Origin: a virus
Virus record (IMG/VR): IMGVR_UViG_3300020020_000041
Span: 1 to 51,770 of that record
Strand: one strand, 5' to 3'
DNA: 51,770 nucleotides
Shown: piece by piece, positions 4,008 to 51,770 of the stretch
How positions within the stretch are numbered: the first letter of the stretch is position 1
Layout of the letters: every line of letters starts with the position of its first letter
Translations under genes and position numbers: made by a program
Notes under the pieces: generated by a model
Told to the model about the DNA's origin: nothing
Databases searched by the model: none
What the model saw: only the letters and a program-made list of their open reading frames with translations

Positions 4008-5463
4008 CCGTTTCCGGCCTGTCCGGACCCGATCCGACCATCAGCGCCGTCATTTCCTGCGCGCGTTTCTTTCGTTCGAGCATCATCGTCGCGATTTCTT
4101 TATCGTTGAGTAGTCCGGATTTTTTCAACAGAACCGCATCGTCGAGTTGTTGCAATTGAACGAGCGCGCCGACTTTCGCTTTGTCTGATTCCGCCTGCGC
4201 CGTCGGATCCAGACGTTCCGGCGCCGCGAATAGCGGTTTGATCATTTTGTTTTCGTCGAGCGTATCGATTCCGAACGCGTTCTGTATTTCGGTCGATCGG
4301 TGCGCCAGAGTTGCCCACGACGGACCGGTTGTTTTCGTTAGTTGAATCGTTTTGTCGACTAGCGGCTGTTCAGCGCGCATTAGCGCCAGACCAGACGGCC
4401 AGTCGCCGCCGGTAATTACGAATTCCGGCGTTCTGGTCGAACTCGCCGCCGCCTGTTTTTTGGCGATTAGAACGTCGATCAGTTTCGACATATCGCCGGC
4501 GTTGAGCGCGCCGACACGCGCGTCCGAGTTCGCGGACGTGATGATATAGCCCGGTCCGATATAGAGTGTTTCTTCATCGCCGTTCGCATCGATTTCCGGT
4601 TGATAACCGGTCACGAAATAGACTTGAAATCCGGTCGTTCTGGCGGCGGAAATAATGTCCCAGTGGATATCGTTGATCTGGTCCTGAATACCGATAATTC
4701 CGCCGTCGAGATCGGACATTCCGTAGGATCTGGCGCCAGACGCTTTTTGATTCGAGAAATGGATCATCGGAACGCCGAGCGGAGATCCGTTCCGTTTCAA
4801 CCACGGTTCGACCGGTAGTTTGTCGATTCCCTCGGCGGATCCGTCATACGGTTCCCAGACCGGACCGCGGAGAACGTATCGCTCAATCCGATCGTGGAAA
4901 TAGATGTTCCGGAGTCGCAGCGTTCGTTTGGATCTGGCGCCGACGTTCGGATCGCGGATCTCCCATTCTTTGACGCCGAACTCGGGTTCCTCATCTTCAT
5001 CGGTATAACAGACCCACGAACCGGTAACGCCGTCCCACCACGGTTCTAGGTGCGCGGTAACGCGACCGGCGGACGGTTCGCCGGCGGAATCGTGTTCGGT
5101 TACTTTCCAGCCGAGAATTGTCGCAACGTTGCCGTCCCGCGGCGCCGCGTAATGGATATCGTACTGTTTCCGATCCATCCGGTTTTTGATCCAGAGATCC
5201 TCATCGAGAAACGTTTGTACGTCCGGATCGTCGACGGCGAAACCGGTTAGTTCCGCGCGCGACGCGACGGTCGAAACGATTTTGTCGCAGATATTGTCAG
5301 CGAATCGTTCCGGGATAATCGGATAAATAATCCGCCGTTGTTCGGTTGTCAGAGTGCAGAATTGATCGCCGCGCGCGTATCGGCGGAACGTGTCCGTCTG
5401 GTTCGGATCGCGTGACGTCGCCGTTCGGAGTCGCGCGATCCGATCGTGAACAGATTCGGCCAT
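3985..5463 (-). CDS. Portal protein
   Basis: This 492-residue protein lies 2 bases after the large terminase gene, the standard place for a portal. It resembles SPP1 gp6/actinophage portals: an N-terminal charged segment, NICDKIVSTVASRAELTGF near residue 60, and GGIIGIQDQINDIHWDII in the middle, typical of the long helical clip/stem region. The portal forms the dodecameric ring at the capsid vertex through which DNA enters and leaves. The ATG at 5463 is preceded by a GGGGGTAGTA ribosome site that overlaps the terminase stop. Length matches the family. Confidence 0.92.
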   Translation of the reverse strand: MAESVHDRIARLRTATSRDPNQTDTFRRYARGDQFCTLTTEQRRIIYPIIPERFADNICDKIVSTVASRAELTGFAVDDPDVQTFLDEDLWIKNRMDRKQYDIHYAAPRDGNVATILGWKVTEHDSAGEPSAGRVTAHLEPWWDGVTGSWVCYTDEDEEPEFGVKEWEIRDPNVGARSKRTLRLRNIYFHDRIERYVLRGPVWEPYDGSAEGIDKLPVEPWLKRNGSPLGVPMIHFSNQKASGARSYGMSDLDGGIIGIQDQINDIHWDIISAARTTGFQVYFVTGYQPEIDANGDEETLYIGPGYIITSANSDARVGALNAGDMSKLIDVLIAKKQAAASSTRTPEFVITGGDWPSGLALMRAEQPLVDKTIQLTKTTGPSWATLAHRSTEIQNAFGIDTLDENKMIKPLFAAPERLDPTAQAESDKAKVGALVQLQQLDDAVLLKKSGLLNDKEIATMMLERKKRAQEMTALMVGSGPDRPETGASGDAI

Positions 5464-7724: not shown

Positions 7725-8579
7725 TTACTTGATCGCGATCCAGCCGGCGAAATTGACCCATCGCCAGAAACAATCGACCTCACGGAAACCGGCGTCGCGG
7801 AGTAGTTGTTCGTTCATTCTGGCGGAAATCGGGACTTGAACGCCCTCTAACGCGAACCGTTTCCGTTCGATTTCGTCCGTTGTATATCCGTTGTCGCGTT
7901 TGAGTCGGTGATACCGATCGACGAAAACCGTATCGAGCGCGGCGCCGTCTGGCAGGACTTTTTCGACCAGAACGAACGCGCCGCCCGGATTGAGCGAATC
8001 CCAGACGCGGCGGACGATCGGAATCCGGTAATTGATCGGAACGAACATCAGCGTTAGAACGGACAGAACGATCGACGCGTCGACGAACGGAAACCGATCG
8101 GTCCGGAGATCGGTTTTCTCGATCCGGACCAGATCGCCGGGATAGGTTGCGAACCGGAGTTTCGCGGCGGCGATCATCGGATCCGAGATTTCGAGTCCGA
8201 CGTAACGGTTGCCGGCGCCGAACCGGTTCAGAAACGGAACGAACGCCTCGCCGCGGGACGTTCCGAGATCGGCGATCGTCGAGTCTGGCGTCACGAACGG
8301 CGCCGCCAGATCGAACACGAGCGCGCGCATCTGGCGGTAATCGGGGATCGATCGATCGAGCATATCGTCGAATACGTCCGTAACCGATTGATCGAACTCC
8401 CACCGTTCGGTTGCCGGCGTATGTCCGAGCGAACTCGCCGGCGCGATCGGTTGCGCGTCTGGTTTGACGTCGCCGCGGAGTTGTTCGGCGCCAGACTCGG
8501 CGAGAACGATCCGATCCGAATCGGCGTATTCGTTCGGCGCGGTCGGTTTCCGGAAATAGTGGGAGAAATCTCTAACCAT
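7725..8579 (-). CDS. CmoA-like carboxy-SAM synthase
   Basis: A 284-residue class I SAM-fold protein resembling bacterial CmoA, which converts SAM and prephenate to carboxy-SAM (Cx-SAM). N-terminal FDQSVTDVFDDMLDRSIPDY (63-82) matches the E. coli CmoA segment [20 protein letters not shown]. Motif I is IADLGTSRGE (102-111). LNPGGAFVLVEK (196-207), RLKRDNGY and EIERKRFALEGV also align. Arg241 falls at E. coli Arg199, the residue that grips the Cx-SAM carboxylate. The C-terminal FWRWVNFAGWIAIK matches the CmoA end. The start overlaps the DNA methyltransferase stop by 8 bases. No CmoB partner is present, so a use in DNA rather than tRNA modification is inferred. An ordinary methyltransferase of the same fold is the alternative. 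Confidence 0.85.
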   Translation of the reverse strand: MVRDFSHYFRKPTAPNEYADSDRIVLAESGAEQLRGDVKPDAQPIAPASSLGHTPATERWEFDQSVTDVFDDMLDRSIPDYRQMRALVFDLAAPFVTPDSTIADLGTSRGEAFVPFLNRFGAGNRYVGLEISDPMIAAAKLRFATYPGDLVRIEKTDLRTDRFPFVDASIVLSVLTLMFVPINYRIPIVRRVWDSLNPGGAFVLVEKVLPDGAALDTVFVDRYHRLKRDNGYTTDEIERKRFALEGVQVPISARMNEQLLRDAGFREVDCFWRWVNFAGWIAIK

Positions 8580-10883: not shown

Positions 10884-11339
10884 TTAGTCCGGTTCGGCGT
10901 TGAGTTCGGCGCGGAACCGTTCGAACTCGGCGAACGATTGCGTTACGCGACCGCCGAGCGGTTCGAGTCTGGCGCGGATCAATTCCGCGGACGCCGCCTG
11001 ATACGGAACGAGATCGTCATCGTTTTTGATTCCGGACGATTCGGACGTCGCCCACATACGGATAACGGCCAGACAGATATCGGCGGCGACGCCGAGTAGC
11101 GTCGCCTGTTTCTCGCCGAGCGAACCCGATTCCGGCGGTCGTTCGGTTGTCATCTGGCGCAACGTATCCAGAATCCCGGCGACGGCGCCGAGTTCGGTAA
11201 TAAACGGCGCCGCTAACTCCGCGGAGTCGCCGCGCCAGACAATACCGATTCCGCCGTCCTCGAACGGATCCGGCGCCGGCGGATTGTCCCGGTTGATATA
11301 AACGCGACCGTTGCCGTTGAGTTTGCGTGCTTTTGCCAT
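10884..11339 (-). CDS. Hypothetical protein
   Basis: 151 residues with a GGAGATCC ribosome site before ATG 11339. The N-terminus is basic (MAKARKLNGNGRVYINRD), the rest helical and acidic. No Cys cluster, signal or membrane segment is seen. It follows the 38-residue membrane protein gene and precedes the modification operon with a 132-base gap. No function is recognised. Confidence 0.7.
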   Translation of the reverse strand: MAKARKLNGNGRVYINRDNPPAPDPFEDGGIGIVWRGDSAELAAPFITELGAVAGILDTLRQMTTERPPESGSLGEKQATLLGVAADICLAVIRMWATSESSGIKNDDDLVPYQAASAELIRARLEPLGGRVTQSFAEFERFRAELNAEPD

Positions 11340-11357
11340 TTTTGGATCTCCGATCCG

Positions 11358-13095: not shown

Positions 13096-13346
13096 CAGAA
13101 CCGCGCCGCGTTGTGAAACTGGATTCCGAGATTCGCGACGCCGCGGAGTTCGTCGATCGACCGTTCGGTATCGATCGCGCGGTTCAGCCAGTAGGCGACC
13201 GTTTCGTCCGCGTTGCCGTAACCGGCGTCGACGGCGATTTTCGCGGCGGCGAGTTGCCGTCCGATCTCGACGGCGTCGACGCCGAGAACGAGCAGCCGAG
13301 CGTGGATCGCGACGTCTGTTTTGTTGAGCGGTTCGATTGAGCGCAT
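13095..13346 (-). CDS. Hypothetical protein
   Basis: 83 residues with a GAAAGGAAACGCAA-ATG start. The central stretch is helical (AVEIGRQLAAAKIAVDAGYG). It is the first gene of a short operon with the next frame and is driven by a clear TTGACG/TAACCT promoter just upstream. No function is recognised. Confidence 0.7.
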   Translation of the reverse strand: MRSIEPLNKTDVAIHARLLVLGVDAVEIGRQLAAAKIAVDAGYGNADETVAYWLNRAIDTERSIDELRGVANLGIQFHNAARF

Positions 13347-13392
13347 TTGCGTTTCCTTTCGCGGCGCCGGCCAGTTCCGGCGTTACGCGACT

Positions 13393-13422
13393 AGGTTACG
13401 CGATCGAGAACCAGACCGTCAA
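13393..13422 (-). promoter_or_regulatory. Promoter TTGACG-N18-TAACCT
   Basis: On the minus strand the -35 TTGACG (13422-13417) overlaps the stop of the upstream gene, the spacer is 18 bases and the -10 is TAACCT (13398-13393). It sits 50 bases before the ATG at 13346. Confidence 0.6.
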
Positions 13423-13778
13423 CCTGACGCCGGCGGGATCCGTCCGTCCGGATCGATATCGAGATCCCATTCGACGATCGCGACGTCGCGAAACGCGGCG
13501 AACGCGGCGCCGAGCGCGGCGGCGAACGCCGGGATCTGTCCGATCCGTAACGCGACGTCGGACAGCACCCATTCTTTGTTCGGATTGCCGCGATCGGCGA
13601 ATCGAACCATCCGTTTGCGGCGGTATATCTGACAGACGATATCAGGCGATCCGCCGGCGCGGTAGAGAAATCCGTGGATCTGAATTTTGTACGCGTCGCG
13701 GTAATACAGACCGTCCGGCGTTTCGTCGACGATCCGTTCGACGTTGATCTCGATCGGATAGGTTCGTTTAGAAACCAT
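13419..13778 (-). CDS. Hypothetical protein
   Basis: 119 residues whose ATG overlaps the end of the preceding gene by 11 bases. It is beta-rich (YKIQIHGFLYRAGG) and has a basic YRRKRMVRF patch. The C-terminal part is acidic. No domain is recognised. It is co-translated with the 115-residue gene upstream. Confidence 0.65.
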   Translation of the reverse strand: MVSKRTYPIEINVERIVDETPDGLYYRDAYKIQIHGFLYRAGGSPDIVCQIYRRKRMVRFADRGNPNKEWVLSDVALRIGQIPAFAAALGAAFAAFRDVAIVEWDLDIDPDGRIPPASG

Positions 13779-14115
13779 CGATTCGTTTCGTTTCGCGTTC
13801 TGGCGGCGGCGGCGCGACGTCGAAATCGATCGCCGGCGCGTTGAGTCGACAGAAATATGACCGCGGTGGCCAGATCACGCCGCGCGGATAATACGGAACG
13901 TGCCGCCGCCACTCCGCGCGGAGATACGCGTCGATCCGCGCCATTACGATCTCCGCGGCGTTGAGTAGTTCCGGATCGATCGCGGACGTATCGGCGGTCC
14001 GAAACGCGTTGAGCGCGACCGTTGCCGATTTCCAGTCCCACGTTCGCCGGAATTGATAGTCGCGGACAACCGCGGCGATCTGGCGCCGGACCGGACCGCG
14101 ATCGAGTATTCCCAC
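13768..14115 (-). CDS. Hypothetical protein
   Basis: About 115 residues from GTG 14115, chosen because AGGGG lies 8 bases upstream; the frame stays open to 14220 but that part overlaps a terminator and the repeated CCGGAAACCGGG motif. The protein has Trp/Arg-rich helices (YQFRRTWDWKSATVALNAF) and a Pro-rich C-terminus. Function unknown. Confidence 0.6.
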   Translation of the reverse strand: MGILDRGPVRRQIAAVVRDYQFRRTWDWKSATVALNAFRTADTSAIDPELLNAAEIVMARIDAYLRAEWRRHVPYYPRGVIWPPRSYFCRLNAPAIDFDVAPPPPERETKRIDGF

Positions 14116-14125
14116 CTGTTTGACC

Positions 14126-14155
14126 CCTAGCGCAGCGGAGAACCCGGTTTCCGGC
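14126..14155 (-). repeat. Recurrent boundary motif (GAACCCGGTTTCCGG on plus strand)
   Basis: GAGAACCCGGTTTCCGGCCTGAATTGGCC, split here as GAGAACCCGGTTTCCGG then CCTGAATTGGCC. It matches sites at 25545, 26028, 48126 and 48845. It lies between the 13768 gene and the first of the cassette genes. Confidence 0.6.
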
Positions 14156-14218
14156 CTGAATTGGCCTATTCTGGCGCGTTCGTCCGGATCGTAACCGATC
14201 GGATCCGGCGCCAGACAC

Positions 14219-14252
14219 AAAAAAACCGCCGGCGCGTCTGGCGCCGGCGGTT
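14219..14252 (-). terminator. Intrinsic terminator
   Basis: Perfect ACCGCCGGCGC/GCGCCGGCGGT hairpin followed on the minus strand by seven T, directly after the 14264 stop. Confidence 0.9.
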
Positions 14253-14263
14253 CTGGTTCGGTT

Positions 14264-14605
14264 CTATTTGGCGACGGTCCGGAGTTTCGAATCGCGGTCG
14301 ATCAATTGATCGGCGACGCCGGCGTTTTCGAGTAGCGTTTCGAGCGACAGTTTGGTCCGATAGAGATCGGTCAGTTTCGCTTTGTTCTCGGCGACCGTTT
14401 TCGCGTGGGCGTTGAGATTCCGCATCAATTCCTCAACGCGTCCGCCGGTTTGCCACGCCGTTTCGCCGAGAACGTCGATTTCGTTGTTCCGCGCGGCGCC
14501 GTCGAGTCTGATCGCGGCGGACTGGATATCGCCCTCAGCCCATTCGATCCGTTCCTCTAGGTCGAGTATCCGAGCGACGATTCCGGCGGCGAGTTTGCTA
14601 TCCAT
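14264..14605 (-). CDS. Coiled-coil small protein (cassette gene)
   Basis: 113 residues from ATG 14605 with a GAAAGGAACTCGACA ribosome region. The open frame runs further upstream, but only through the promoter. The chain is almost wholly helical, with heptad-like segments (ILDLEERIEWAEGDIQSAA and ELMRNLNAHAKTVAENKAK). It is a self-contained cassette: palindromic promoter at 14660, terminator at 14219. No family is recognised. Confidence 0.75.
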   Translation of the reverse strand: MDSKLAAGIVARILDLEERIEWAEGDIQSAAIRLDGAARNNEIDVLGETAWQTGGRVEELMRNLNAHAKTVAENKAKLTDLYRTKLSLETLLENAGVADQLIDRDSKLRTVAK

Positions 14606-14659
14606 TGTCGAGTTCCTTTCGAGCGACGTTGCCGCGACCAGTTCCGCGGTAACGAGTCC

Positions 14660-14688
14660 ATAGTACGCGATCGCGTAACGGTTCGCCA
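14660..14688 (-). promoter_or_regulatory. Palindromic cassette promoter P1
   Basis: -35 TGGCGA (14688-14683), 17-base spacer, -10 TACTAT (14665-14660). The spacer and -10 contain the perfect palindrome TACGCGATCGCGTA at 14664-14677. Repeated before many small genes. Confidence 0.75.
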
Positions 14689-14704
14689 CCTACTTTGGCA
14701 CCTA

Positions 14705-14740
14705 CAAAAAAACCGGCGCCGGATCTCGCCGGCGCCGGTT
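14705..14740 (-). terminator. Intrinsic terminator
   Basis: Perfect AACCGGCGCCGG/CCGGCGCCGGTT hairpin with a seven-T tail on the minus strand, after the 14755 stop. Confidence 0.9.
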
Positions 14741-14754
14741 GATTGATTGAGCGG

Positions 14755-15054
14755 TTACAGACCGTCGTACGGCGTCGCGGTCCGGTTGAGATCTGCCAGA
14801 CATTCGTCGCACCAGTACGGATTCGTCGGCGTCGCGGCGACGTTGCAGACGAAACCGTTTTCCGGACAACCGCCGCACGTCGCGCCGTCGCGGACGGCGA
14901 CCGCGATCAACATCAACAGATCGCGATTGTCCCCCCACGGCATTGCCGCGGACGGATTGTATTTCTGGTCCCATGACTCGCCGAGTATTTCGCGCGCCGC
15001 CGGTTCCGTTATTCCGAGTCGCGATTCGAGTTCCGGGAATCGTTCGTACGTCAT
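14755..15054 (-). CDS. Cys-rich small protein (cassette gene)
   Basis: 99 residues from ATG 15054 (MTYERFPELESRLGITEPAA), ribosome site GAAAGGACCAGACAG. The C-terminal half has CGGC, then single Cys, then WCDEC: a likely four- or five-Cys zinc site. The N-terminal half is helical. It has its own promoter (15104) and terminator (14705). No family is recognised; a small DNA- or protein-binding early product is plausible. Confidence 0.75.
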   Translation of the reverse strand: MTYERFPELESRLGITEPAAREILGESWDQKYNPSAAMPWGDNRDLLMLIAVAVRDGATCGGCPENGFVCNVAATPTNPYWCDECLADLNRTATPYDGL

Positions 15055-15103
15055 CTGTCTGGTCCTTTCGATCTGGCGCCGGACCAATTCCGGCGCCGTC
15101 CGG

Positions 15104-15133
15104 ATCGTACGCGATCGCGCAACCGATCCGCCA
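15104..15133 (-). promoter_or_regulatory. Palindromic cassette promoter P2
   Basis: -35 TGGCGG, spacer 18, -10 TACGAT (15109-15104), with the ACGCGATCGCG core in the spacer. Confidence 0.65.
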
Positions 15134-15149
15134 CCGGACGCCAGATACG

Positions 15150-15179
15150 AAAAACCGCCGGCGAGTTCCGCCGGCGGTT
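15150..15179 (-). terminator. Intrinsic terminator
   Basis: AACCGCCGGC/GCCGGCGGTT hairpin plus a five-T tail on the minus strand, after the 15194 stop. Confidence 0.85.
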
Positions 15180-15193
15180 GTCTGGTCGATCGG

Positions 15194-15454
15194 TTAGAGA
15201 TCGTGATGGTTCGTCGGATCGTTGCGCGACCATTCCGCGATTCCCGGTTCGAGTTCGTCGAGCGAAATATCGCCGTACTCGGAGATCTGAATATGGTCCG
15301 GATAATCTGGCGCCGCGGCGGTTCCGGCGGCGATCGCCAGATCGAGCGTATCGAATTCGCGTTCGTCGACGCGTATCGGTTCGGCGTCCGGATCGGACGT
15401 CCGCCAGAATTCGAGAACGAACGGTTTCGGTTCTTTGTTGAGTATCCGAGTCAT
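15194..15454 (-). CDS. Hypothetical acidic protein (cassette gene)
   Basis: 86 residues with CTGAAAGGAC as ribosome site. The sequence alternates beta-like and acidic stretches (FVLEFWRTSDPDAEPIRVDE). It has no palindromic promoter of its own, so it is probably transcribed with the 15520 gene through a weak hairpin. No function is recognised. Confidence 0.7.
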   Translation of the reverse strand: MTRILNKEPKPFVLEFWRTSDPDAEPIRVDEREFDTLDLAIAAGTAAAPDYPDHIQISEYGDISLDELEPGIAEWSRNDPTNHHDL

Positions 15455-15479
15455 TGCGGTTTTGTCCTTTCAGCGTTGA

Positions 15480-15510
15480 GCGCGGCGCCGGTCTGGTCCG
15501 GCGCCGTTTG
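15480..15510 (-). terminator. Hairpin without U-tract (attenuator-like)
   Basis: CGGCGCCGGACC/GGTCCGGCGCCG-type inverted repeat between two cassette genes. The T-run is missing, so full termination is doubtful. Confidence 0.4.
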
Positions 15511-15519
15511 ATCGATCGG

Positions 15520-15819
15520 TTATTTGTACGTTCCGTTGAGCGTGTGCCAGAACGCCAGACCGTCGCGTTTCCGTTGTTCCCACGCCGCGCCGGTAAACGG
15601 TTTCAGATCCGCCGCGGTCGCGTTGTCCGCGATCGTTTTCGCCGGACCGTTGTCCGCGTGATCGTTGAGTTCGTATTGTTTGGTTTTCCAGAACCGATAA
15701 CGCGCGACCGTATATCCCGGCCAGTTTTGCGTCATATACCGATCGATCCGATCGTCGTATTTCGGTCCGCCCTCACGATCGATTCGATCGAGTAGAGACA
15801 GAGTTTCGCGGAACGGCAT
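15520..15819 (-). CDS. Hypothetical protein (cassette gene)
   Basis: 99 residues from ATG 15819 (MPFRETLSLLDRIDREGGPK), ribosome site GAAAGGAAAAACGGCG. It is rich in Tyr, Trp and charged residues and looks like a compact soluble protein. It is served by promoter P3 (TATACT -10). No family is recognised. Confidence 0.72.
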   Translation of the reverse strand: MPFRETLSLLDRIDREGGPKYDDRIDRYMTQNWPGYTVARYRFWKTKQYELNDHADNGPAKTIADNATAADLKPFTGAAWEQRKRDGLAFWHTLNGTYK

Positions 15820-15870
15820 CGCCGTTTTTCCTTTCGCTATCGCCCGAACCAGTTTCGAGCGTCCGCAACC

Positions 15871-15899
15871 AGTATACTCGATCGCGTAACGGTTTGCCA
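15871..15899 (-). promoter_or_regulatory. Palindromic cassette promoter P3
   Basis: -35 TGGCAA, 17-base spacer, -10 TATACT. The palindrome is slightly altered (ACTCGATCGCG on plus). Confidence 0.7.
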
Positions 15900-15904
15900 C
15901 CGGA

Positions 15905-15940
15905 CACAAAAACGCCGGCGCCAGATCCGGCGCCGGCGTT
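15905..15940 (-). terminator. Intrinsic terminator
   Basis: AACGCCGGCGCC/GGCGCCGGCGTT hairpin and five-T tail on the minus strand, after the 15954 stop. Confidence 0.88.
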
Positions 15941-15953
15941 GAGTTGTTGCGCG

Positions 15954-16178
15954 TTATTTGGCGCGGAGTGCGAGTTCGTCGCGATAGGCTAACGCGGTCC
16001 GTCGCGCCGCGACCGCCGCGAATGGATCGAGCGCGTCAGCGGTTTCGAATCGTTCCGCCCAGTAAACCAGATCGGCGACCGATCGCCGTTTCGCGAGTTT
16101 GGTCAACCGTCCGTATTGCGTCGATTTCCGATCGGCGGCGGCGAGTTTGGCGGCGTCCGCGGCGAGTTTGGTTTCCAT
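15954..16178 (-). CDS. Small helical protein (cassette gene)
   Basis: 74 residues from ATG 16178 (METKLAADAAKLAAADRKST); the ribosome site CGAAAGGATC lies 6 bases upstream. The chain is Ala/Arg/Lys-rich and helical, with a central basic LTKLAKRRSVADL. A much longer open frame reads through from upstream but crosses the promoter and the next gene. Its promoter (16234) and terminator (15905) make it a complete cassette. Function unknown. Confidence 0.72.
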   Translation of the reverse strand: METKLAADAAKLAAADRKSTQYGRLTKLAKRRSVADLVYWAERFETADALDPFAAVAARRTALAYRDELALRAK

Positions 16179-16233
16179 CGATTTGATCCTTTCGAATTCT
16201 GTCCCGGCGCCGGACCAGACCGGCGACCTGTTC

Positions 16234-16262
16234 ATAGTACGCGATCGCGTAACGGTTCGCCA
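16234..16262 (-). promoter_or_regulatory. Palindromic cassette promoter P4
   Basis: -35 TGGCGA, 17-base spacer, -10 TACTAT, with perfect TACGCGATCGCGTA; nearly identical to P1. Confidence 0.75.
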
Positions 16263-16276
16263 CTCGACGCCAGATA

Positions 16277-16312
16277 ACAGAAACGCCGGCGCCAGATCCG
16301 GCGCCGGCGTTT
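16277..16312 (-). terminator. Intrinsic terminator-like hairpin
   Basis: AACGCCGGCGCC/GGCGCCGGCGTT, identical in stem to the 15905 hairpin, but with a short T-run (TTTCTGTT) on the minus strand. Confidence 0.7.
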
Positions 16313-16329
16313 GTTCGGTTGAGCGGTTG

Positions 16330-16572
16330 TTACCGATCGCGGACTCGGAGAACGAACCGGACCATTCCGTCGAAATCGACGGCGACGTATTGTCTGGCGC
16401 CGTCCGCGTCGACGGCGACCTGTTGGTATTTCGCCATATTTGGCGCGGCGAGTTTGAGCGCCGATCGTTCGCTATTACAGAGAAAATTGAATTCGGACAT
16501 TCGTCCGTGTCCCCACGGCGTTGTATTGATTTGCGTAACCGCGAACGTTTTTCGAACCGCTTTGGCGCCCAT
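16330..16572 (-). CDS. Hypothetical protein (cassette gene)
   Basis: 80 residues with ribosome site CGAAAGGATCAAAACA before ATG 16572. A basic N-terminus (MGAKAVRKTFAVTQINTTPW) is followed by beta-like segments ending VRFVLRVRDR. It is served by promoter P5. No family is recognised. Confidence 0.72.
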   Translation of the reverse strand: MGAKAVRKTFAVTQINTTPWGHGRMSEFNFLCNSERSALKLAAPNMAKYQQVAVDADGARQYVAVDFDGMVRFVLRVRDR

Positions 16573-16628
16573 TGTTTTGATCCTTTCGAGATCTGTCCCG
16601 CCGGCGAACCAGATCGCCGACGCCGTTC

Positions 16629-16657
16629 ATAGTACGCGATCGCGAAACCTAACGCAA
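16629..16657 (-). promoter_or_regulatory. Cassette promoter P5
   Basis: -35 TTGCGT (16657-16652, inside the end of the VRR-NUC gene), 17-base spacer, -10 TACTAT. The palindrome is half-kept (TACGCGATCGCGAA). Confidence 0.7.
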
Positions 16658-17068
16658 CGTCGGCGGAATCGCGTCCGGTTCGAACTCGGCGAGAACGTCG
16701 AGTAAATCCGTAAACGCGATTTCGTATTCGTTTTTCGGAATCGGACGGACGATCGTCGCCAGACCGGTAACCCAACCGGTTCCGTCGAGCGCCGCCGAGC
16801 GAACGATCCGGAATACGGATTCCTGTCCCGGCGTAACGCGCCGCTTTTGCGATTTGAGTTCGAGAACGGCGACGATTCCGGGCAGGACGATAACCAGATC
16901 CGGACAGTCCGTCATTTCTGGCGATCTCCGCGAATCGCGAACGTGCCACGCGCGTCCGCCGAGAACCGCGACCAGATCGACAATCGTCGCTAACATCTGG
17001 TCCTCGGACATAGTCGCGGCGTATTCGTCGCGTGAGATCTCGCCGTCTGGCGCCGTCCGTCTGGTCAT
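16649..17068 (-). CDS. VRR-NUC domain nuclease
   Basis: 139 residues from ATG 17068, overlapping the upstream TAA by one base. The core shows CPDLVIV (Asp57), LELKS (Glu70, Lys72) and TPGQ (Gln82): the PD-(D/E)xK pattern of the VRR-NUC family found in phage nucleases and Holliday-junction resolvases. Position in the replication block fits DNA processing, for example resolving recombination or replication intermediates. The upstream 40 residues of the open frame are not needed and overlap the next gene. Confidence 0.85.
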   Translation of the reverse strand: MTRRTAPDGEISRDEYAATMSEDQMLATIVDLVAVLGGRAWHVRDSRRSPEMTDCPDLVIVLPGIVAVLELKSQKRRVTPGQESVFRIVRSAALDGTGWVTGLATIVRPIPKNEYEIAFTDLLDVLAEFEPDAIPPTLR

Positions 17069-21578: not shown

Positions 21579-21859
21579 CCGACTGCAACCATCCCGAAAT
21601 CGATATCGCGCCGAACGCCGAGTTCGTTATCGATTGGCGCGGCGCCGGAATCGCCGTCCGTCTGGCGCCGATCCGGTGTCCGTATTGCGGAATGATCGCC
21701 GTATTCGATCGCGCGGCGACGATCGACGCGATCCGGAATTCGGATCCGGACGATCCGCCGGTTCTGGTTTACCGATACGCGAAACGTCCGCGATTGAATT
21801 TCGTTACGCGATCGACCGCGGCGCCGAGTGGTCCGCCGATACGCGATCGCGTACAATGA
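21575..21859 (+). CDS. Small CPYC-containing protein
   Basis: 94 residues. CPYCG near residues 35-39, with an N-terminal CNH, could form a zinc site. The 3' end of the gene contains the palindromic promoter for the next gene, so its last codons (PIRDRVQ) are set by that promoter. The stop lies 49 bases before the next ATG. Function unknown. Confidence 0.68.
   Translation: MTDCNHPEIDIAPNAEFVIDWRGAGIAVRLAPIRCPYCGMIAVFDRAATIDAIRNSDPDDPPVLVYRYAKRPRLNFVTRSTAAPSGPPIRDRVQ
21829..21857 (+). promoter_or_regulatory. Palindromic promoter P11 (plus strand)
   Basis: TGGTCC-N17-TACAAT, with the perfect TACGCGATCGCGTA at 21840-21853: the same element as the minus-strand cassette promoters, here reading rightward. 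Confidence 0.65.
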
Positions 21860-21908
21860 CAGAGTCGCCGGCGAACTGGTCGCCGGGATTGAGTAAAGGA
21901 TCAGAACC

Positions 21909-22856
21909 ATGACCGATCGACAACTATTCGACGAACTCGGACCGATACCGACGCGGGAATCGGACAATCTATCGATCGCGCGACTCGAATTTCTACACGG
22001 CGCGTTGCCAGATAGCGACCACCCGATGTGGGACGAATACCGCCAGAACGATGATCGACGGCGCGCCGCGGCGAAACTCGCCGCGGCGGAATCTGTCGCC
22101 GCCGGCGACGTAACGGACGGTTACTGTCTGCAATGCGGTCGCGTTTACCACCAGATCGGACGCGCCGCGGTCGGACTCAATTGCGAGTCGAGTTGGTGCC
22201 GCGGAATCGTCGCCGAACTCAACGGCGGCGGTTGTTCGGTAATCGTTTCGAACGAATACCGCGACGCCGGATTCCCCGGCGACTATTCCGGACCAGACGA
22301 TCCAGACGAATACGATCCGGATCCGTCCGATCCGGCGTATGACGCATACATACAGGGCCAGATCGACCGCGGCGAGAACGTCGGACCAGACGATCCGCCG
22401 GTCGCCGAATTCCGCGATTTCGCGCCGGCGTACGATCTGGCGTTCGTCGCCGAGTGCGATTCCGAAACGTGGGATCGCGTTACGGGGCGGACGCCGGCGC
22501 CAGATCCGGACGCGGTCGGAATCGATCGCGAACCGGTTACGGTCGAAACCGTTCTCGAAATGTTCGACGCGATCTCGGAATCGGTCGGAACCGTTACGTT
22601 CGACGTTGAGTTTCCGACGAATTTCGACGCGTTCGAGGACTCGGATTTCGAGGACTATATCGCGTTCGCCGAACAGAAATCCGCCGAGGCGTTAGCCTAC
22701 GCGGAACGACTCGCCGACGAACTCGAACGGCGGCGATCGGCGGCGGCGGTTGAGCGCCAGACCGCCGAGCGGATCGAGAACGGATCCTATTCGTCGACGG
22801 TTGTCGACGGAACGGTTGTTTTTCAGACGCGGCGCGTCGATCTGGCGGCGGAGTAA
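21909..22856 (+). CDS. Hypothetical acidic zinc-binding protein
   Basis: 315 residues from ATG 21909 with AAAGGATCAGAACC upstream. CLQCGRVYH near 73-81, then C and WC, suggest a zinc knuckle. Next is a very acidic Asp/Pro segment (GPDDPDEYDPDPSDPAYDAY), then acidic helices and a coiled coil (AYAERLADELERRRSAAA). Its acidity suggests a nucleic-acid mimic or inhibitor, but this is only an inference. Function unknown. Confidence 0.7.
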   Translation: MTDRQLFDELGPIPTRESDNLSIARLEFLHGALPDSDHPMWDEYRQNDDRRRAAAKLAAAESVAAGDVTDGYCLQCGRVYHQIGRAAVGLNCESSWCRGIVAELNGGGCSVIVSNEYRDAGFPGDYSGPDDPDEYDPDPSDPAYDAYIQGQIDRGENVGPDDPPVAEFRDFAPAYDLAFVAECDSETWDRVTGRTPAPDPDAVGIDREPVTVETVLEMFDAISESVGTVTFDVEFPTNFDAFEDSDFEDYIAFAEQKSAEALAYAERLADELERRRSAAAVERQTAERIENGSYSSTVVDGTVVFQTRRVDLAAE

Positions 22857-23083
22857 TGGCGAACGAACTCGGCGGCGCGTCCGTTCTCTATACCGCGACG
22901 AACGGCGCCAGATACGAAATCGACGCGATCCCGGATCCGAACGGCGATCGGTTCGGATACGAATACCGCGCGCCAGACGGCGAAACAACGTATCGACGCG
23001 CCGGATATCCGTATCGGACCGCCCTCGAATCGATCGACGCCGCGATCGACGCGGTCGAATTTATGGTTCGCCCGATCGAGTAA
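22856..23083 (+). CDS. Hypothetical small protein
   Basis: 75 residues; the ATG overlaps the upstream TAA (TAATG). Beta-like strands with a Tyr-rich pattern (RFGYEYRAPDGETTYRRAGY). It is the last gene before a 236-base non-coding region holding a structured element and terminator. Function unknown. Confidence 0.68.
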   Translation: MANELGGASVLYTATNGARYEIDAIPDPNGDRFGYEYRAPDGETTYRRAGYPYRTALESIDAAIDAVEFMVRPIE

Positions 23084-23122
23084 ACTAGCCTAGTAACGGA
23101 CGGATCGTCGGCGACGGCGGTC

Positions 23123-23232
23123 CGGTCCGTATAGCGTCTGTCGGATCGACCAGAGTTCCGCGACCGCGGAGTTAGATCCTTTCGCCGCGGTCGTTCTGGT
23201 CGAGACCAGTCCGGCGGACGCTATACGGACCG
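23123..23232 (+). ncRNA. Putative structured RNA with anti-Shine-Dalgarno loop
   Basis: Three stacked stems: 23123-23146 with 23209-23232 (16 perfect pairs, then a run with G-U pairs), 23147-23154 with 23195-23202, and 23161-23169 with 23185-23193. The G-U pairs form only in plus-strand RNA. The 15-base loop contains GATCCTTTCG (23175-23184), the exact complement of CGAAAGGATC, the ribosome site of several phage genes (16178, 16572, 48712, 51404). It is followed by a terminator at 23250. It may be a trans-acting small RNA or a leader of the Rad52-like gene. Confidence 0.6.
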
Positions 23233-23247
23233 AATAGGTCCAGAACG

Positions 23248-23296
23248 AAAAAAACGGTCCGAATCGGCTGGAACCGACCGGACCGTAGGGTTTTTT
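23248..23296. terminator. Bidirectional terminator before the Rad52-like gene
   Basis: ACGGTCCG-AA-TCGG-loop-CCGA-CGGACCGT hairpin flanked by seven A on the left and six T on the right. On the plus strand it would end or attenuate transcripts just before the 23320 gene. Confidence 0.8.
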
Positions 23297-23319
23297 GGAA
23301 ACGGGAACAGGATACCACG

Positions 23320-24066
23320 ATGCCAGAACCAGAACAGATTTCCGCCGCGCTGACCGCGCCGTTCGATCCGAGCGAAATCGAGATCAAGTCCGGAAACGTA
23401 TTTCTCCCTCACGAAATCGTTCGCGCGCGGTTGATCGCCGCAACCGGAAACGTATTCGACTGGTCGATCGATCAGGTTCTATTCCGCGATGACGGCGCGA
23501 CCAGACGCGCGGCGAATCAATCGACCGGCGAGATTCCGCGACCTATCGCGATGGTTGTTCTCGGAACGTTGACGATTCCGGGACTCGGATCGCGCGGCGG
23601 AATCGGAACGCATCCGATCGACGCCGGCGCCGGCGAGGACGCCGCGTATAAATCCGCCGAGTCTGACGCGTTGAAACGCGCCGCGATGGGATTCGGCGTC
23701 GGACTCGATCAGTTGTATATCAACGCCGCCGCAACGAAACGCGAAACGAACGGCGGATCCAGATCGGCGACGCGCCAGATCGCGGACGCGCCGCGGTCCG
23801 GTCATTCTGGCGGATTGAGCGACCAACAGTTCGCCGAACAGATCCGCGTCGCGGTTGTCAACGCGGACGGCGTCGAGTTCCGGCGTCTGGTCGACCAATG
23901 CGGCGACCATATCGGACGGTGGATTATCGTCGCGAAAAACGTATCGCCGGCGGCGGCGCCGTGGGTTCGCAACCGCGCCGAGTCCGCCGGCGTTCTCAAC
24001 GATTTACTGGCGCGCGAACTCGATAAACGGATCGCGCCGGCGCCAGACCAGAACGCCGGACAATAA
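23320..24066 (+). CDS. Rad52/ERF-like single-strand annealing protein
   Basis: 248 residues, ATG preceded by ACAGGA. The hallmark SDALKRAAMGFGVGLDQLY (115-133) with AYKSAE before it is the Rad52/22-family signature, and the N-terminal strand-rich part (residues 20-100) fits the Rad52 ring fold. It should anneal complementary single strands for recombination-dependent replication or repair. The C-terminal third is Ala-rich with a charged segment. Attenuation by the upstream terminator is likely. Confidence 0.88.
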   Translation: MPEPEQISAALTAPFDPSEIEIKSGNVFLPHEIVRARLIAATGNVFDWSIDQVLFRDDGATRRAANQSTGEIPRPIAMVVLGTLTIPGLGSRGGIGTHPIDAGAGEDAAYKSAESDALKRAAMGFGVGLDQLYINAAATKRETNGGSRSATRQIADAPRSGHSGGLSDQQFAEQIRVAVVNADGVEFRRLVDQCGDHIGRWIIVAKNVSPAAAPWVRNRAESAGVLNDLLARELDKRIAPAPDQNAGQ

Positions 24067-25644: not shown

Positions 25645-25848
25645 CTAACCGGTAAACGTTCCGCCGAATCGTTCCATTCCGCGGTGCATCCGATTCTCCC
25701 GCGCGTTCTCGGCGTCGAGTTCGTCGGTATCTGGCGCCGCGTCGCGATAGGTGAACGGGTGGCCCGGATAACCTTCCATACCGTGTTCAGACAGCAACCA
25801 TCCACAGACCGCGCAAGTTGGTTCCGTCATCGTTCCGTCGTATTCCAT
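25645..25848 (-). CDS. Small Cys/His protein (cassette gene)
   Basis: 67 residues from ATG 25848 with GAAAGGAACTCAACG. CAVCGWLLSEHGMEGYPGH gives C-x2-C...H...H, a probable zinc finger. It has its own palindromic promoter at 25901 and a shared terminator. It is flanked by duplicated sequence on both sides, so it looks like an inserted cassette. Function unknown. Confidence 0.72.
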   Translation of the reverse strand: MEYDGTMTEPTCAVCGWLLSEHGMEGYPGHPFTYRDAAPDTDELDAENARENRMHRGMERFGGTFTG

Positions 25849-25900
25849 CGTTGAGTTCCTTTCGAGCGTCCGCCGCCGGACCAGAACCGGCGACCTGTCC

Positions 25901-25929
25901 ATACTACTCGATCGCGTAACGGATATCCA
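25901..25929 (-). promoter_or_regulatory. Palindromic cassette promoter P6
   Basis: -35 TGGATA, 17-base spacer, -10 TAGTAT; core ACTCGATCGCGTA on plus. Confidence 0.65.
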
Positions 25930-25953
25930 GCAACGGCGCCAGATCCGCCAGAT

Positions 25954-48241: not shown

Positions 48242-48712
48242 TTAGCGCGGTTGATACGTTTTGAGTTTGGCGGCGTTTTTCGGCGATTGATCGAGAATAA
48301 CCGCGGCGTGATATTCGCAGAACCGGCGACCGTCGAATTCGTTCATCGCGCCGCGCCAGTCATTCGAACAACCGTCGCCGTTTTTGCAACACGGCGGACG
48401 CGCCGCCAGAAATTCTAGTTTTCCCTCGGCGTGCATCCGGTTCAAGTGGTCGAACGTAACGTCGAACGGTCGATCGGTTGCCGATCGCCGTAACCGCAAC
48501 GTCGCGCCGCCGAGATCGACAACGGCGTGAACCATTCCCGGATCGCGAAACGATCGGACGTATTCGAGAACGTAACCGGTCCGGATCGCGTTCTCGATCG
48601 TTCCGGGATACGAACGGATTTGCGCGGCGCCGGCGACGATCTCCGCGCGGTTCCGGCGTTCGCCGTCCTGTTGTTCGTCTGGCGCGGTCGATCTGGCGTT
48701 GAGCGTTGTCAT
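48242..48712 (-). CDS. Cys-rich protein (cassette gene)
   Basis: 156 residues from ATG 48712, ribosome site CGAAAGGATC. The N-terminal part is helical and polar; the C-terminal half holds PPCCKNGDGCSNDWRG and RRFCEYHA, which gives four Cys and a His likely to bind zinc. It has promoter P7 and a terminator. No family was recognised; the C-terminal zinc module may bind nucleic acid. Confidence 0.72.
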   Translation of the reverse strand: MTTLNARSTAPDEQQDGERRNRAEIVAGAAQIRSYPGTIENAIRTGYVLEYVRSFRDPGMVHAVVDLGGATLRLRRSATDRPFDVTFDHLNRMHAEGKLEFLAARPPCCKNGDGCSNDWRGAMNEFDGRRFCEYHAAVILDQSPKNAAKLKTYQPR

Positions 48713-48771
48713 CGGTTTTTGATCCTTTCGAGATCTGTCCCGCCGGCGGACCAATACCGCCGGCGCCGTTC

Positions 48772-48801
48772 ATAGTACGCGACCGCGTAACGGATCGGCC
48801 A
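48772..48801 (-). promoter_or_regulatory. Palindromic cassette promoter P7
   Basis: -35 TGGCCG, spacer 18, -10 TACTAT; core TACGCGACCGCGTA has one palindrome change. Confidence 0.68.
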
Positions 48802-48841
48802 CTACTCCGCGGCGGATTAGTCGATCGCGGCGATCGTTGCG

Positions 48842-48873
48842 CGTACGCACCTGTTTCCGGGCTGAATTAGCGG
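48842..48873 (-). repeat. Recurrent boundary motif, divergent copy
   Basis: CGCACCTGTTTCCGGGCTGA then ATTAGCGG on plus. Together with 48123 it brackets the 48242 gene. Confidence 0.5.
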
Positions 48874-48907
48874 GTTCTGGCGCGATCGCCGGATCGGTAA
48901 CGCCGCC

Positions 48908-48940
48908 GAAACGTTACATCGCAGTTCCGTGTAACGTTTC
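48908..48940. promoter_or_regulatory. Operator-like inverted repeat
   Basis: GAAACGTTACA, 11-base spacer, TGTAACGTTTC: perfect 11-base arms, three turns long overall. It lies in a 291-base non-coding stretch between two cassette genes. A dimeric repressor or activator could bind here. Confidence 0.55.
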
Positions 48941-48955
48941 TGGCGCCGCGGATAT

Positions 48956-48992
48956 ACAAAAACCGCCGCCGGATCCGTTCCGGCGGCGGTTG
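48956..48992 (-). terminator. Intrinsic terminator
   Basis: AACCGCCGCCGGA/TCCGGCGGCGGTT hairpin and five-T tail on the minus strand, after the 49004 stop. Confidence 0.88.
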
Positions 48993-49003
48993 AGCGGTTG
49001 CGA

Positions 49004-49477
49004 TCAGAAACAGAGATCGCCGTGGGGCGCGACGTACATCTGGCGGTGGGTTTTGCCGGCGGCGTCGACGAACGATCCCTCGATCGAGTTATCCATCCAG
49101 AACGTAACGCCGGTCCAGACGCCGGAAACCAGAACGGGAACGCCGTGGCATCGACCGCACGCGCAACCGTAATACGATCCCCAATTCGGCGCCTTGGGGC
49201 ACCGCGAGTTCATCCGATAGCCGACGTACTTGATCGTCCAGACTTTCGCGCCGTCCTCGAGGTTCCGCGCCGCGTCGAGTTTTTGCGGAACCGGAACGTG
49301 GTCCGCGGACAACCGGTCGAGTCGCCGAGCGCATAACGCTTTGTCGAGTAACCGGACGATCTCGCCGTTCGCTTTGGCGCGCGCGTCCGTTGTTGACGTC
49401 GCCGGAACCGCGTTCCGAGCGGCGCGCGCGTTGACTAGGGCGAGTTGAAATTTCCGCGTATTGACCAGAGTCGACAT
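49004..49477 (-). CDS. Cys-rich protein (cassette gene)
   Basis: 157 residues from ATG 49477 with GAAAGGATTCGGAAA. The first half is helical and basic; the second has SRCPKAPNWGSYYGCACGRC with further aromatic residues (FWMDNSIEGSF), a likely zinc-binding module. Promoter P8 and terminators on both sides make it a complete cassette. Function unknown. Confidence 0.72.
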   Translation of the reverse strand: MSTLVNTRKFQLALVNARAARNAVPATSTTDARAKANGEIVRLLDKALCARRLDRLSADHVPVPQKLDAARNLEDGAKVWTIKYVGYRMNSRCPKAPNWGSYYGCACGRCHGVPVLVSGVWTGVTFWMDNSIEGSFVDAAGKTHRQMYVAPHGDLCF

Positions 49478-49529
49478 TTTCCGAATCCTTTCGATATCCC
49501 GCCGCCGAACCAGATCGGCGACGTTGTCC

Positions 49530-49558
49530 ATATTACGCGATCGCGTAGGATCCTGCAA
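49530..49558 (-). promoter_or_regulatory. Palindromic cassette promoter P8
   Basis: -35 TTGCAG, 17-base spacer, -10 TAATAT; core TTACGCGATCGCGTA. The best -35/-10 pair of the family. Confidence 0.75.
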
Positions 49559-49571
49559 CCCGGCGCCAGAC

Positions 49572-49614
49572 ACAGAAACGCCGCCGGTGGCTATCGACGG
49601 CGGCGGTTCTGTTT
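49572..49614. terminator. Bidirectional hairpin
   Basis: ACAGAAACGCCGCCG...CGGCGGCGGTTCTGT inverted repeat after the 49738 gene, with T-rich flank on plus. Confidence 0.6.
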
Positions 49615-49642
49615 TGCCGCGGAGATTCTAACGCCAGACGCG

Positions 49643-49689
49643 ACAGAACGCCGGCGGATTCCTTGGGGGGATTCGTTCCGGCGTTCTGT
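49643..49689. repeat. Inverted repeat in the 49738-49477 gap
   Basis: ACAGAACGCCGG...CCGGCGTTCTGT, 12-base perfect arms around a 23-base loop with six G in a row. No T-run follows, so a role other than termination is possible. The rest of this 260-base gap holds only the promoter and terminator. Confidence 0.6.
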
Positions 49690-49737
49690 CTGGTCGGTTT
49701 GCGCGGACTCGAATCGCGCGCGCCGGTTGCGTTGAGT

Positions 49738-50004
49738 CTATCCGGTTCCGTCGATCGCGGAGAACGATCGGATCCGATCGGATTCCGATTCGGTTATTTC
49801 GTCCATTGTCGGATCGCCCTCGATCGAATGTTTGTAGTACAGATAATCCGGATCGTCGAGCGGTATCCAGTCGCGCGTTTTATCGTCCCACCGGAACGGC
49901 GCCCATCCCGGAATTCTGGCGCGGAACAGAACGCCAGATCCGCCGCGGATTTCTGAAATCAGAAAATAGCGGAACGTCGGCGCGGTTGTTTTTCTATCGG
50001 TCAT
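49738..50004 (-). CDS. Hypothetical protein (cassette gene)
   Basis: 88 residues with CGAAAGGGGATCGCA before ATG. Aromatic, strand-like N-terminal half (FRYFLISEIRGGSGVLFRAR; WAPFRWDDKTRDWIPL) and an acidic C-terminus. No family is recognised. A hairpin with T-rich tail lies just upstream of it. Confidence 0.7.
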   Translation of the reverse strand: MTDRKTTAPTFRYFLISEIRGGSGVLFRARIPGWAPFRWDDKTRDWIPLDDPDYLYYKHSIEGDPTMDEITESESDRIRSFSAIDGTG

Positions 50005-50029
50005 TGCGATCCCCTTTCGGATCCTAGAA

Positions 50030-50060
50030 TAAACGCCGCCGGAATTGCCGGCGGCGTTGA
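50030..50060 (-). terminator. Intrinsic terminator
   Basis: AACGCCGCCGG/CCGGCGGCGTT hairpin with TTTATTC tail on the minus strand, after the 50087 stop. Confidence 0.75.
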
Positions 50061-50086
50061 CGGTTGAGCGGTTCGAGATCTGGCGG

Positions 50087-50371
50087 TTAGTCGACGAACG
50101 ATTCCAGACGGCGCGCGGCGATCTCGGCGACCGTCGCGATCGTTTCGAGTCGATCGATAAATACCGCGGTTGTTAGCGGTCGCGACAGAACGTCGAACGT
50201 CGGTTTTCCGGGTTTGCGTTCGTCGAGCGGTTTCATCGCGACTAGCGTCCATTTCGTTCGTTTGCCGGCGATCTGGTCGACGGCGTGGAATCGGCGATCG
50301 GTTGCGTTCGAGATCCGGAAAACGAGATCGTCGATCGTTTCGAATTGTTTTTGTCTGGCGGCGGTTGTCAT
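50087..50371 (-). CDS. Hypothetical protein coupled to the LPD29 gene
   Basis: 94 residues whose ATG overlaps the stop of the LPD29 gene (ATGA). Alpha/beta mix with many Thr and Arg (FETIDDLVFRISNATDRRFH; AVFIDRLETIATVAEIAARR). It is likely a partner of the LPD29 protein or a simple operon member. Function unknown. Confidence 0.7.
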   Translation of the reverse strand: MTTAARQKQFETIDDLVFRISNATDRRFHAVDQIAGKRTKWTLVAMKPLDERKPGKPTFDVLSRPLTTAVFIDRLETIATVAEIAARRLESFVD

Positions 50372-50850
50372 CTGGCGTCGCCGATCCGGACGGTTTCGAG
50401 AACGCGTTCGCGGTTCTCGGCGTTGAGCGCGTCGAAATCCAGATCGCGCGTTTCCCAGACCACTTCATTTTCGGCCCAATTGCCGTTGATCTGAAAATGG
50501 CCGTCGAGTATTTGTCCGGTAACCGAAAACCGGAGATTCGTTCCGTGGCGCCGGTTGAACCGCTCAACCGCGGCGGCGACGCCGGCGGCGGACAGATCGC
50601 GGACAACGCCGACGTATTTCGCCTGCGGACCGCCGTCGAGCGCGTATTGATCTGGCGCGCGGTGCCGGTTGTATTCGTATTTGGCGAGTAGCGCGACAAC
50701 CGCGGACGGCGACGGACCGTCGAAATACGTAACCTCAACGGACGAACCCATCGAGAACGTTTTCGCGCGAACCGTGAATTTCGTATTCGGATACGCGGTT
50801 TTGAGATCTCGCCGAACGAGTTTGGCGGCGGCGGTCGGATCGATGTTCAT
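50368..50850 (-). CDS. LPD29-domain protein
   Basis: 160 residues from ATG 50850 with GAAAGGAACTCCG. AKLVRRDLKTAYPNTKFTVR, SSVEVTYFDGPSPSAVVALL and a Tyr/Asp segment match the LPD29 domain, found in large polyvalent phage and mobile-element proteins and as small free proteins. The role of LPD29 is not established; it may bind nucleic acid or protect incoming DNA. The rest is a short charged domain. Own promoter P9. Confidence 0.75.
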   Translation of the reverse strand: MNIDPTAAAKLVRRDLKTAYPNTKFTVRAKTFSMGSSVEVTYFDGPSPSAVVALLAKYEYNRHRAPDQYALDGGPQAKYVGVVRDLSAAGVAAAVERFNRRHGTNLRFSVTGQILDGHFQINGNWAENEVVWETRDLDFDALNAENRERVLETVRIGDAR

Positions 50851-50910
50851 CGGAGTTCCTTTCGAGTTCTGGCGGCGCGCCGGACCAGTTACCGAACGCG
50901 TTACGATTCC

Positions 50911-50939
50911 ATAGTACGCGATCGCGCAACCGATCGCCA
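50911..50939 (-). promoter_or_regulatory. Palindromic cassette promoter P9
   Basis: -35 TGGCGA, 17-base spacer, -10 TACTAT; core TACGCGATCGCGCA. Confidence 0.72.
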
Positions 50940-50967
50940 CCGGACCGCGGCGCCGTCTGGCGGACGC

Positions 50968-51003
50968 ACAAAAACGCGCCGGCGATCTGGTCGCCGGCGC
51001 GTT
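50968..51003 (-). terminator. Intrinsic terminator
   Basis: AACGCGCCGGCGA/TCGCCGGCGCGTT hairpin with five-T tail on the minus strand, after the 51030 stop. Confidence 0.88.
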
Positions 51004-51029
51004 CGAGTTATTGATCCGTTTTTGAGCGG

Positions 51030-51404: not shown

Positions 51405-51459
51405 TGTTTTGATCCTTTCGAGCGAATCCGATCGGCCAGTTCCGATCGGTTACCGAACC

Positions 51460-51488
51460 ATAGTACGCGATCGCGTAACGATCCGCCA
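51460..51488 (-). promoter_or_regulatory. Palindromic cassette promoter P10
   Basis: -35 TGGCGG, 17-base spacer, -10 TACTAT with perfect TACGCGATCGCGTA. It separates the early-type cassettes from the terminase-MuF transcript. Confidence 0.75.
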
Positions 51489-51493
51489 CCGGT

Positions 51494-51730: not shown

Positions 51731-51770
51731 ATACCGGTCCGGTCGCCGTCTGGTCCGGCGCCGCTAACCT
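51731..51770. repeat. Inverted snap-back of 51649-51688
   Basis: The last 40 bases are the exact reverse complement of 51649-51688 (and of 45-84), with a 42-base spacer. The copy interrupts the otherwise intact 83-residue reading frame. It is best explained as a fold-back chimera at the contig end; a real hairpin end is an alternative. Confidence 0.85.

What the first reader, a model, noticed from the sequence alone, without database searches (positions are those of the whole stretch)
23084..23319. Structured RNA with an apical loop complementary to the phage ribosome sites
A three-stem hairpin of 110 bases has G-U pairs that form only in plus-strand RNA, and its loop shows GATCCTTTCG. The complement, CGAAAGGATC, is the ribosome site of at least four minus-strand cassette genes, with close matches at others. 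A terminator follows. The RNA could repress translation of the cassettes in trans, or the element could act as leader/attenuator of the Rad52-like gene.
Basis: partly seen in the sequence, partly recalled or inferred. Interest (0 to 1): 0.72.

Follow-up and report, generated by a model that had tools for sequence, protein, structure and literature searches.

The report
Phage hairpin RNA antisense to ribosome sites
A very stable hairpin in this phage shows, in its loop, the mirror image of the ribosome-binding sequence shared by some twenty of the phage's own genes, and some unrelated mycobacterial phages carry a similarly built hairpin against their own shared start sequence, so it may be an RNA with which such phages turn down their own small genes.

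Summary
Plus-strand 23123-23232 folds at -79.7 kcal/mol, the most stable 110-nt stretch in the window apart from an inverted repeat at the contig end. Its 15-nt loop carries GATCCTTTCG. The complement is exact at four minus-strand gene starts and at least 7 nt long at 20 of 64. About 0.03-0.05% of other genomic 16-mers do as well.

The targets form a regulon: shared palindromic operator, a 5'-UTR hairpin whose stems vary while its loop keeps [C/T]TGG, and an extended Shine-Dalgarno, TCGAAAGGATC. This resembles the SAS/ESAS elements of Cluster K mycobacteriophages.

In Cluster K phage Adephagia, the one reverse-oriented SAS copy, described in 2011 as unexplained in four K1 phages, is the apical loop of a long intergenic hairpin of the same build, with compensatory changes across relatives. 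In 12 of 16 Cluster K genomes the loop can pair with SAS; in four it is replaced, and the K2/K3 genomes examined gave no match.

Best reading: a phage RNA that represses translation of the phage's own SAS-type genes by loop pairing. No transcript is shown, no relative of the window was found, and a Cluster K covariance model does not match the window, so the likeness is architectural.

The parts
21824..21860 (+). Cassette-type promoter with palindromic operator, upstream of the plus-strand genes that run into the hairpin
   Evidence: PSSM score 35.7, among the 12 training sites with the same operator
21909..22856 (+). Gene of unknown function whose start carries AAAGGATC, an 8-nt match to the loop; first gene of the operon upstream of the hairpin
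22856..23083 (+). 75-aa gene of unknown function ending next to the element
23072..23089 (+). Possible own promoter (CGATCGAG-TAAACT), weak: rank 272 in the cassette-promoter scan
23102..23123 (+). Small 5' hairpin of the candidate RNA
23123..23232 (+). Main long hairpin: outer 23-bp stem, middle stem, 5'-side bulge, inner GC stem, 15-nt apical loop
23155..23159 (+). 5'-side bulge GTTCC, at the place where Cluster K hairpins also bulge on the 5' side
23170..23184 (+). Apical loop; GATCCTTTCG (23175-23184) is complementary to the phage's extended ribosome sites
23204..23209 (+). 3'-side bulge GACCAG, complementary to the CTGGTC loop of some cassette leaders; the word is common in this genome, so weak
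23254..23297 (+). Terminator-like hairpin and T6; in canonical form on the minus strand
23320..24066 (+). Rad52-like single-strand annealing protein gene downstream
   Evidence: Pfam PF04098, 28.9 bits, cut-off 20.3
16185..16194 (-). Target site with 10-nt match, gene 15954-16178
16579..16588 (-). Target site with 10-nt match, gene 16330-16572
48721..48730 (-). Target site with 10-nt match, gene 48242-48712
51411..51420 (-). Target site with 10-nt match, gene 51030-51404

Best explanation
The element encodes a noncoding plus-strand RNA, either a short RNA of its own (about 23095-23297) or the 3' end of the 21909-23083 operon transcript. Its apical loop shows a 10-nt antisense of the phage's start-associated sequence (extended Shine-Dalgarno TCGAAAGGATC). 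The loop would pair in trans with these sites on cassette mRNAs and block ribosome loading, lowering translation of up to about 20 phage genes together, including the operon from which it may be made (negative feedback). Shown: the hairpin, the complementarity above chance, the shared build of the targets, and a hairpin of like build with an anti-SAS loop in Cluster K phages. Inferred: transcription, pairing in the cell, repression and its timing.
For: Exceptional fold, stronger on +. Loop complementary (>=8 nt) to 17 of 64 gene starts, reached by 25 of 97,668 other 16-mers; >=7 nt to 20, reached by 53. GAAAGGA is nearly confined to start sites: 18 starts, 3 within genes, 1 loop. The match includes the flanking C and TC, which do not pair with the 16S tail. 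Targets share operator and leader hairpin, and their ribosome sites are about half or more unpaired (0.49-0.80). [quoted passage not shown] In Adephagia it is the apical loop of a long intergenic hairpin with a 5'-side bulge and inner GC stem; the homologous hairpin is present in 16 sampled genomes, with compensatory changes, 32 G-U against 7 A-C cells favouring the + strand, and a loop that can pair with SAS in 12 of 16. Mycobacterial B11/6C RNA represses genes by pairing C-rich loops with ribosome sites (PMC10470900).
Against: No transcript evidence. The Cluster K model gives no match to the window hairpin, so common descent is not shown. Four of 16 Cluster K hairpins have lost the anti-SAS loop although SirPhilip, the one of these checked, keeps normal SAS sites; TM4, Pixie and MacnCheese have SAS but no convincing model match. 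Cluster EF phage AnnaSerena has SAS but no antisense copy within 3 mismatches that looks like such an element. The own promoter is weak and the + terminator not canonical. Duplex energies alone do not single out the loop.
Confidence: 0.55

Rival explanations
1. The hairpin is a structural 3'-UTR or terminator element of the plus-strand operon 21909-23083 that protects or ends the transcript; the loop match is a relic of an inverted cassette leader and has no function in trans.
For: No terminator lies between gene 22856-23083 and the hairpin; a terminator-like hairpin follows. Read on the minus strand, the region looks leader-like (CGCCGGACTGGTC ... CGAAAGGATC), as an inverted leader copy would.
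Against: An inverted relic would not be expected to sit exactly in the loop of the strongest internal hairpin; in Cluster K the single antisense copy is placed likewise.
Confidence: 0.2
2. Cis-acting leader: the hairpin and the following terminator control readthrough into the Rad52-like gene (attenuator, or an antitermination element working like the put RNAs of phage HK022).
For: The terminator ends 23 nt before the Rad52-like start and no separate promoter for that gene was found.
Against: The terminator is canonical only for the minus strand; this does not explain the loop's match to distant genes; the Rad52-like start matches the loop by 5 nt or less.
Confidence: 0.12
3. A DNA-level palindrome (cruciform, replication start, recombination site or small mobile element), not an RNA.
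For: Arms of 23 nt at 91% complementarity, next to a single-strand annealing protein gene.
Against: All three wobble pairs form on one strand only; no flanking duplication was seen on inspection; no second copy in the window; does not explain the loop.
Confidence: 0.06

Closest known systems
SAS/ESAS start-associated sequences of Cluster K mycobacteriophages (PMC3203893) and Cluster EF Microbacterium phages (PMC7302621)
   Same: Extended, unusually conserved Shine-Dalgarno in front of many small genes of unknown function, often with an inverted repeat just upstream; in four K1 phages a single copy in reverse orientation.
   Different: Sequence here is TCGAAAGGATC, not GGGATAGGAGCCC or GGGAAAGGACCCC; the upstream hairpin here keeps a [C/T]TGG loop and varies in its stems. 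The papers read here do not describe the reverse copy as a hairpin loop.
6C / B11 small RNA of mycobacteria
   Same: C-rich hairpin loops pair with ribosome sites of several mRNAs and repress them (PMC10470900).
   Different: Host-encoded, two C-rich loops; no Rfam match here; here one long hairpin with a phage-specific 10-nt antisense.
Staphylococcus aureus RNAIII
   Same: RNA pairing that masks the Shine-Dalgarno of several targets (PMC2837412).
   Different: Large multi-hairpin host RNA; regulates host genes; no relationship in sequence was looked for beyond Rfam.
alphaR8/Sis small RNAs of Caulobacter
   Same: A 10-nt anti-Shine-Dalgarno motif represses many mRNAs (PMC12559287).
   Different: Motif in a single-stranded stretch, Hfq-bound, host-encoded.
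Noncoding RNAs of Cluster A mycobacteriophages (L5, D29)
   Same: Abundant phage noncoding RNAs exist in actinophages (PMC5712189).
   Different: Other phages; function and pairing unknown, no anti-Shine-Dalgarno loop described.

Membership tests
Cluster K anti-SAS hairpin (defined in this work) | Sequence and structure match to covariance model R1 | tested here: not met
   No match at 23123-23232 with filters off and E up to 10
Cluster K anti-SAS hairpin (defined in this work) | Apical loop antisense to the genome's own start-associated sequence | tested here: met
   10-nt GATCCTTTCG against CGAAAGGATC; Adephagia loop likewise against its SAS
Cluster K anti-SAS hairpin (defined in this work) | Noncoding gap, inner GC stem, 5'-side bulge, outer stem | tested here: met
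   judged by eye from the folds
SAS/ESAS | Conserved extended Shine-Dalgarno a few nt before many start codons | tested here: met
   18 of 22 GAAAGGA copies lie 5-10 nt before a start codon
SAS/ESAS | Published 13-bp consensus of Cluster K or EF | tested here: not met
   Consensus here is TCGAAAGGATC
SAS/ESAS | Inverted repeat upstream of the start-associated sequence | tested here: met
   12 leaders with stems of 6-9 bp and loops holding [C/T]TGG
6C / B11 RNA | Rfam family match | tested here: not met
   No Rfam match at gathering score
Base-pairing small RNA acting on ribosome sites | A transcript exists and represses its targets | not testable with these tools
   Needs RNA sequencing and reporters
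HK022 put antitermination RNA | Makes RNA polymerase pass terminators in cis | not testable with these tools
   Only position before a terminator speaks for it

The most novel reading that the evidence does not exclude
Some actinobacteriophage-like lineages that mark a set of accessory genes with a start-associated sequence also encode an antisense hairpin RNA, with or without common descent, that tunes translation of the whole set; the unexplained reverse SAS copy of K1 phages is this RNA.
Probability: 0.42. Interest if true: 0.8.

Novelty: new variant of a known kind. Interest (0 to 1): 0.62.

Why it matters
The role of SAS/ESAS has been open since 2011, and its describers asked whether a phage RNA or protein binds them. 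This gives a concrete candidate RNA in culturable phages such as Adephagia and Anaya, testable with existing M. smegmatis tools. If right, a phage would govern a dispersed set of small genes by one self-encoded antisense to their shared ribosome site.

Tried and rejected
Relatives of the window: terminase, capsid, annealing protein and the 315-aa neighbour by protein, terminase profile in viral contigs and genomes, annealing protein in 50 related records, promoter/operator and stem patterns: no close relative, so no covariation for the window's own hairpin. The start sequence as a 20-mer hit two unrelated GC-poor contigs. Duplex energies of the loop against all starts were not discriminating in this GC-rich genome; exact-match counts were used instead. 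A cassette-type promoter for the RNA was rejected. Translation on the minus strand from the SD-like loop was rejected: no start codon within 30 nt. Rfam and tRNA searches were empty. In AnnaSerena the only intergenic near-copy on the minus strand looks like local pairing with the next gene's site.

Full report
Observation. The plus-strand stretch 23123-23232 folds into one long hairpin (-79.7 kcal/mol; -67.4 for the complement). For 23084-23319 no shuffle of 200 is as stable on either strand, with z -8.4 on + and -5.4 on -. Among 110-nt windows only the inverted repeat at the right contig end is more stable. From outside in: an outer 23-bp stem, a middle stem (TCGACCAGA with TCTGGTCGA), a 5'-side bulge GTTCC, an inner stem GCGACCGCGG/CCGCGGTCGT and a 15-nt loop AGTTAGATCCTTTCG. 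The three G-U pairs all form on + only, which alone is weak. The region has no ATG or GTG on +.

Is the loop match chance? CGAAAGGATC occurs five times, four at gene starts and once as the loop. GAAAGGA occurs 22 times, all on the minus strand: 18 copies 5-10 nt before a start codon, three inside genes, one in the loop. The loop with its neighbour base matches 20 of 64 start regions by 7 nt or more and 17 by 8 or more; 53 and 25 of 97,668 other 16-mers do as well. These positions are few clustered sites, and the loop was chosen after the fact, so I read this as roughly one in several hundred to a few thousand. A pure energy test did not separate it. The match includes C before and TC after GAAAGGA, which do not pair with the usual 16S tail (established knowledge; the host is unknown).

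The targets. Eleven cassette genes share a promoter with the palindrome TACGCGATCGCGTA or a close form of it. Their leaders carry a hairpin whose stems vary widely while the loop keeps [C/T]TGG, then the extended Shine-Dalgarno 14-22 nt on (a twelfth, g13346, is less regular, 10 nt). The plus-strand operon 21909-23083, which runs into the hairpin, has the same promoter and start sequence.

Comparison. This resembles SAS/ESAS of Cluster K mycobacteriophages and Cluster EF phages. [quoted passage not shown] In Adephagia I find it at 58682, in the gap between genes 92 and 93, as the loop of CAGGCGTCGACCAG-CGTT-GCGCGG-CCTCCTATCC-CCGCGC-CCTGGTCGACGTCT: outer stem, 5'-side bulge, inner GC stem, antisense loop, as in the window. 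BLAST finds the region in 177 mycobacteriophage records. Model R1, built from nine hairpins, finds it in 16 of the 18 loci searched. Compensatory changes are present: 5 pairs on the nine-sequence alignment (4 of 500 shuffles reach this), and 4 on the 16-sequence alignment, where that count is not unusual (42 of 500) but the covariation score is (2 of 500). That second alignment was fitted to the model. G-U cells outnumber A-C cells 32 to 7, by distinct pairs 7 to 2, pointing to the strand that shows the antisense.

Limits of the comparison. Five of the 16 hairpins have a 10-nt contiguous antisense of SAS in the loop CCTCCTATCC (one with an added C); seven more have pyrimidine-rich loops that pair with mismatches or a gap; SirPhilip, Chris, Yuna and KiSi have other loops. 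SAS stayed GGGATAGGAGCCC in the genomes where I checked it, including SirPhilip, so loop and target do not covary between lineages. TM4, Pixie and MacnCheese gave no convincing match. R1 does not match the window. The window's element is therefore not shown to be a homologue; the likeness is of build and of loop-to-target relation.

Mechanism. Pairing of a loop with ribosome sites to block initiation is established for RNAIII, for B11/6C in mycobacteria and probably for Sis RNAs. I infer the same here. Whether the RNA has its own promoter (a weak TAAACT near 23083-23089) or is cut from the operon's 3' end is open. If the latter, it is made with the regulon and would act as feedback.

Verdict. 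Its main value is the link to the open SAS question.

Noticed in passing
window 13344-16660, 21824-21911, 25846-25934, 48710-51493: A regulon of about 11 cassettes with a palindromic operator TACGCGATCGCGTA between -35 and -10, a 5'-UTR hairpin with variable stems and constant [C/T]TGG loop, and the extended Shine-Dalgarno. The leader hairpin itself looks like a conserved RNA element; its binder is unknown.
   Followed up: partly
window 51649-51770: Perfect 41-nt inverted repeat with 40 nt between, ending exactly at the contig end: assembly artefact or a hairpin-like terminus.
   Followed up: no
L169 38659-38717 (Adephagia 58658-58716): Conserved structured hairpin in Cluster K mycobacteriophages with an anti-SAS loop; offers an explanation of the reverse-oriented SAS noted in 2011.
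   Followed up: yes
L186 34888-34947, L182 600-650, L179 487-532, L191 603-652: Four Cluster K phages keep this hairpin's stems but have other loops; at least SirPhilip keeps its SAS sites.
   Followed up: partly
L170 near 4310-4350 (AnnaSerena 11310-11350): Upstream of gene 20, GTCCTTGTCTTGAAAGGAC could fold the ribosome site into a local hairpin.
   Followed up: no
window 7725-8579: Phage-encoded tRNA methyltransferase (phrog_4752, 8e-70) beside a DNA methyltransferase.
   Followed up: no
window 50368-50850: Cassette gene with an LPD29 domain (PF18847), the only cassette product tested with a clear domain.
   Followed up: no
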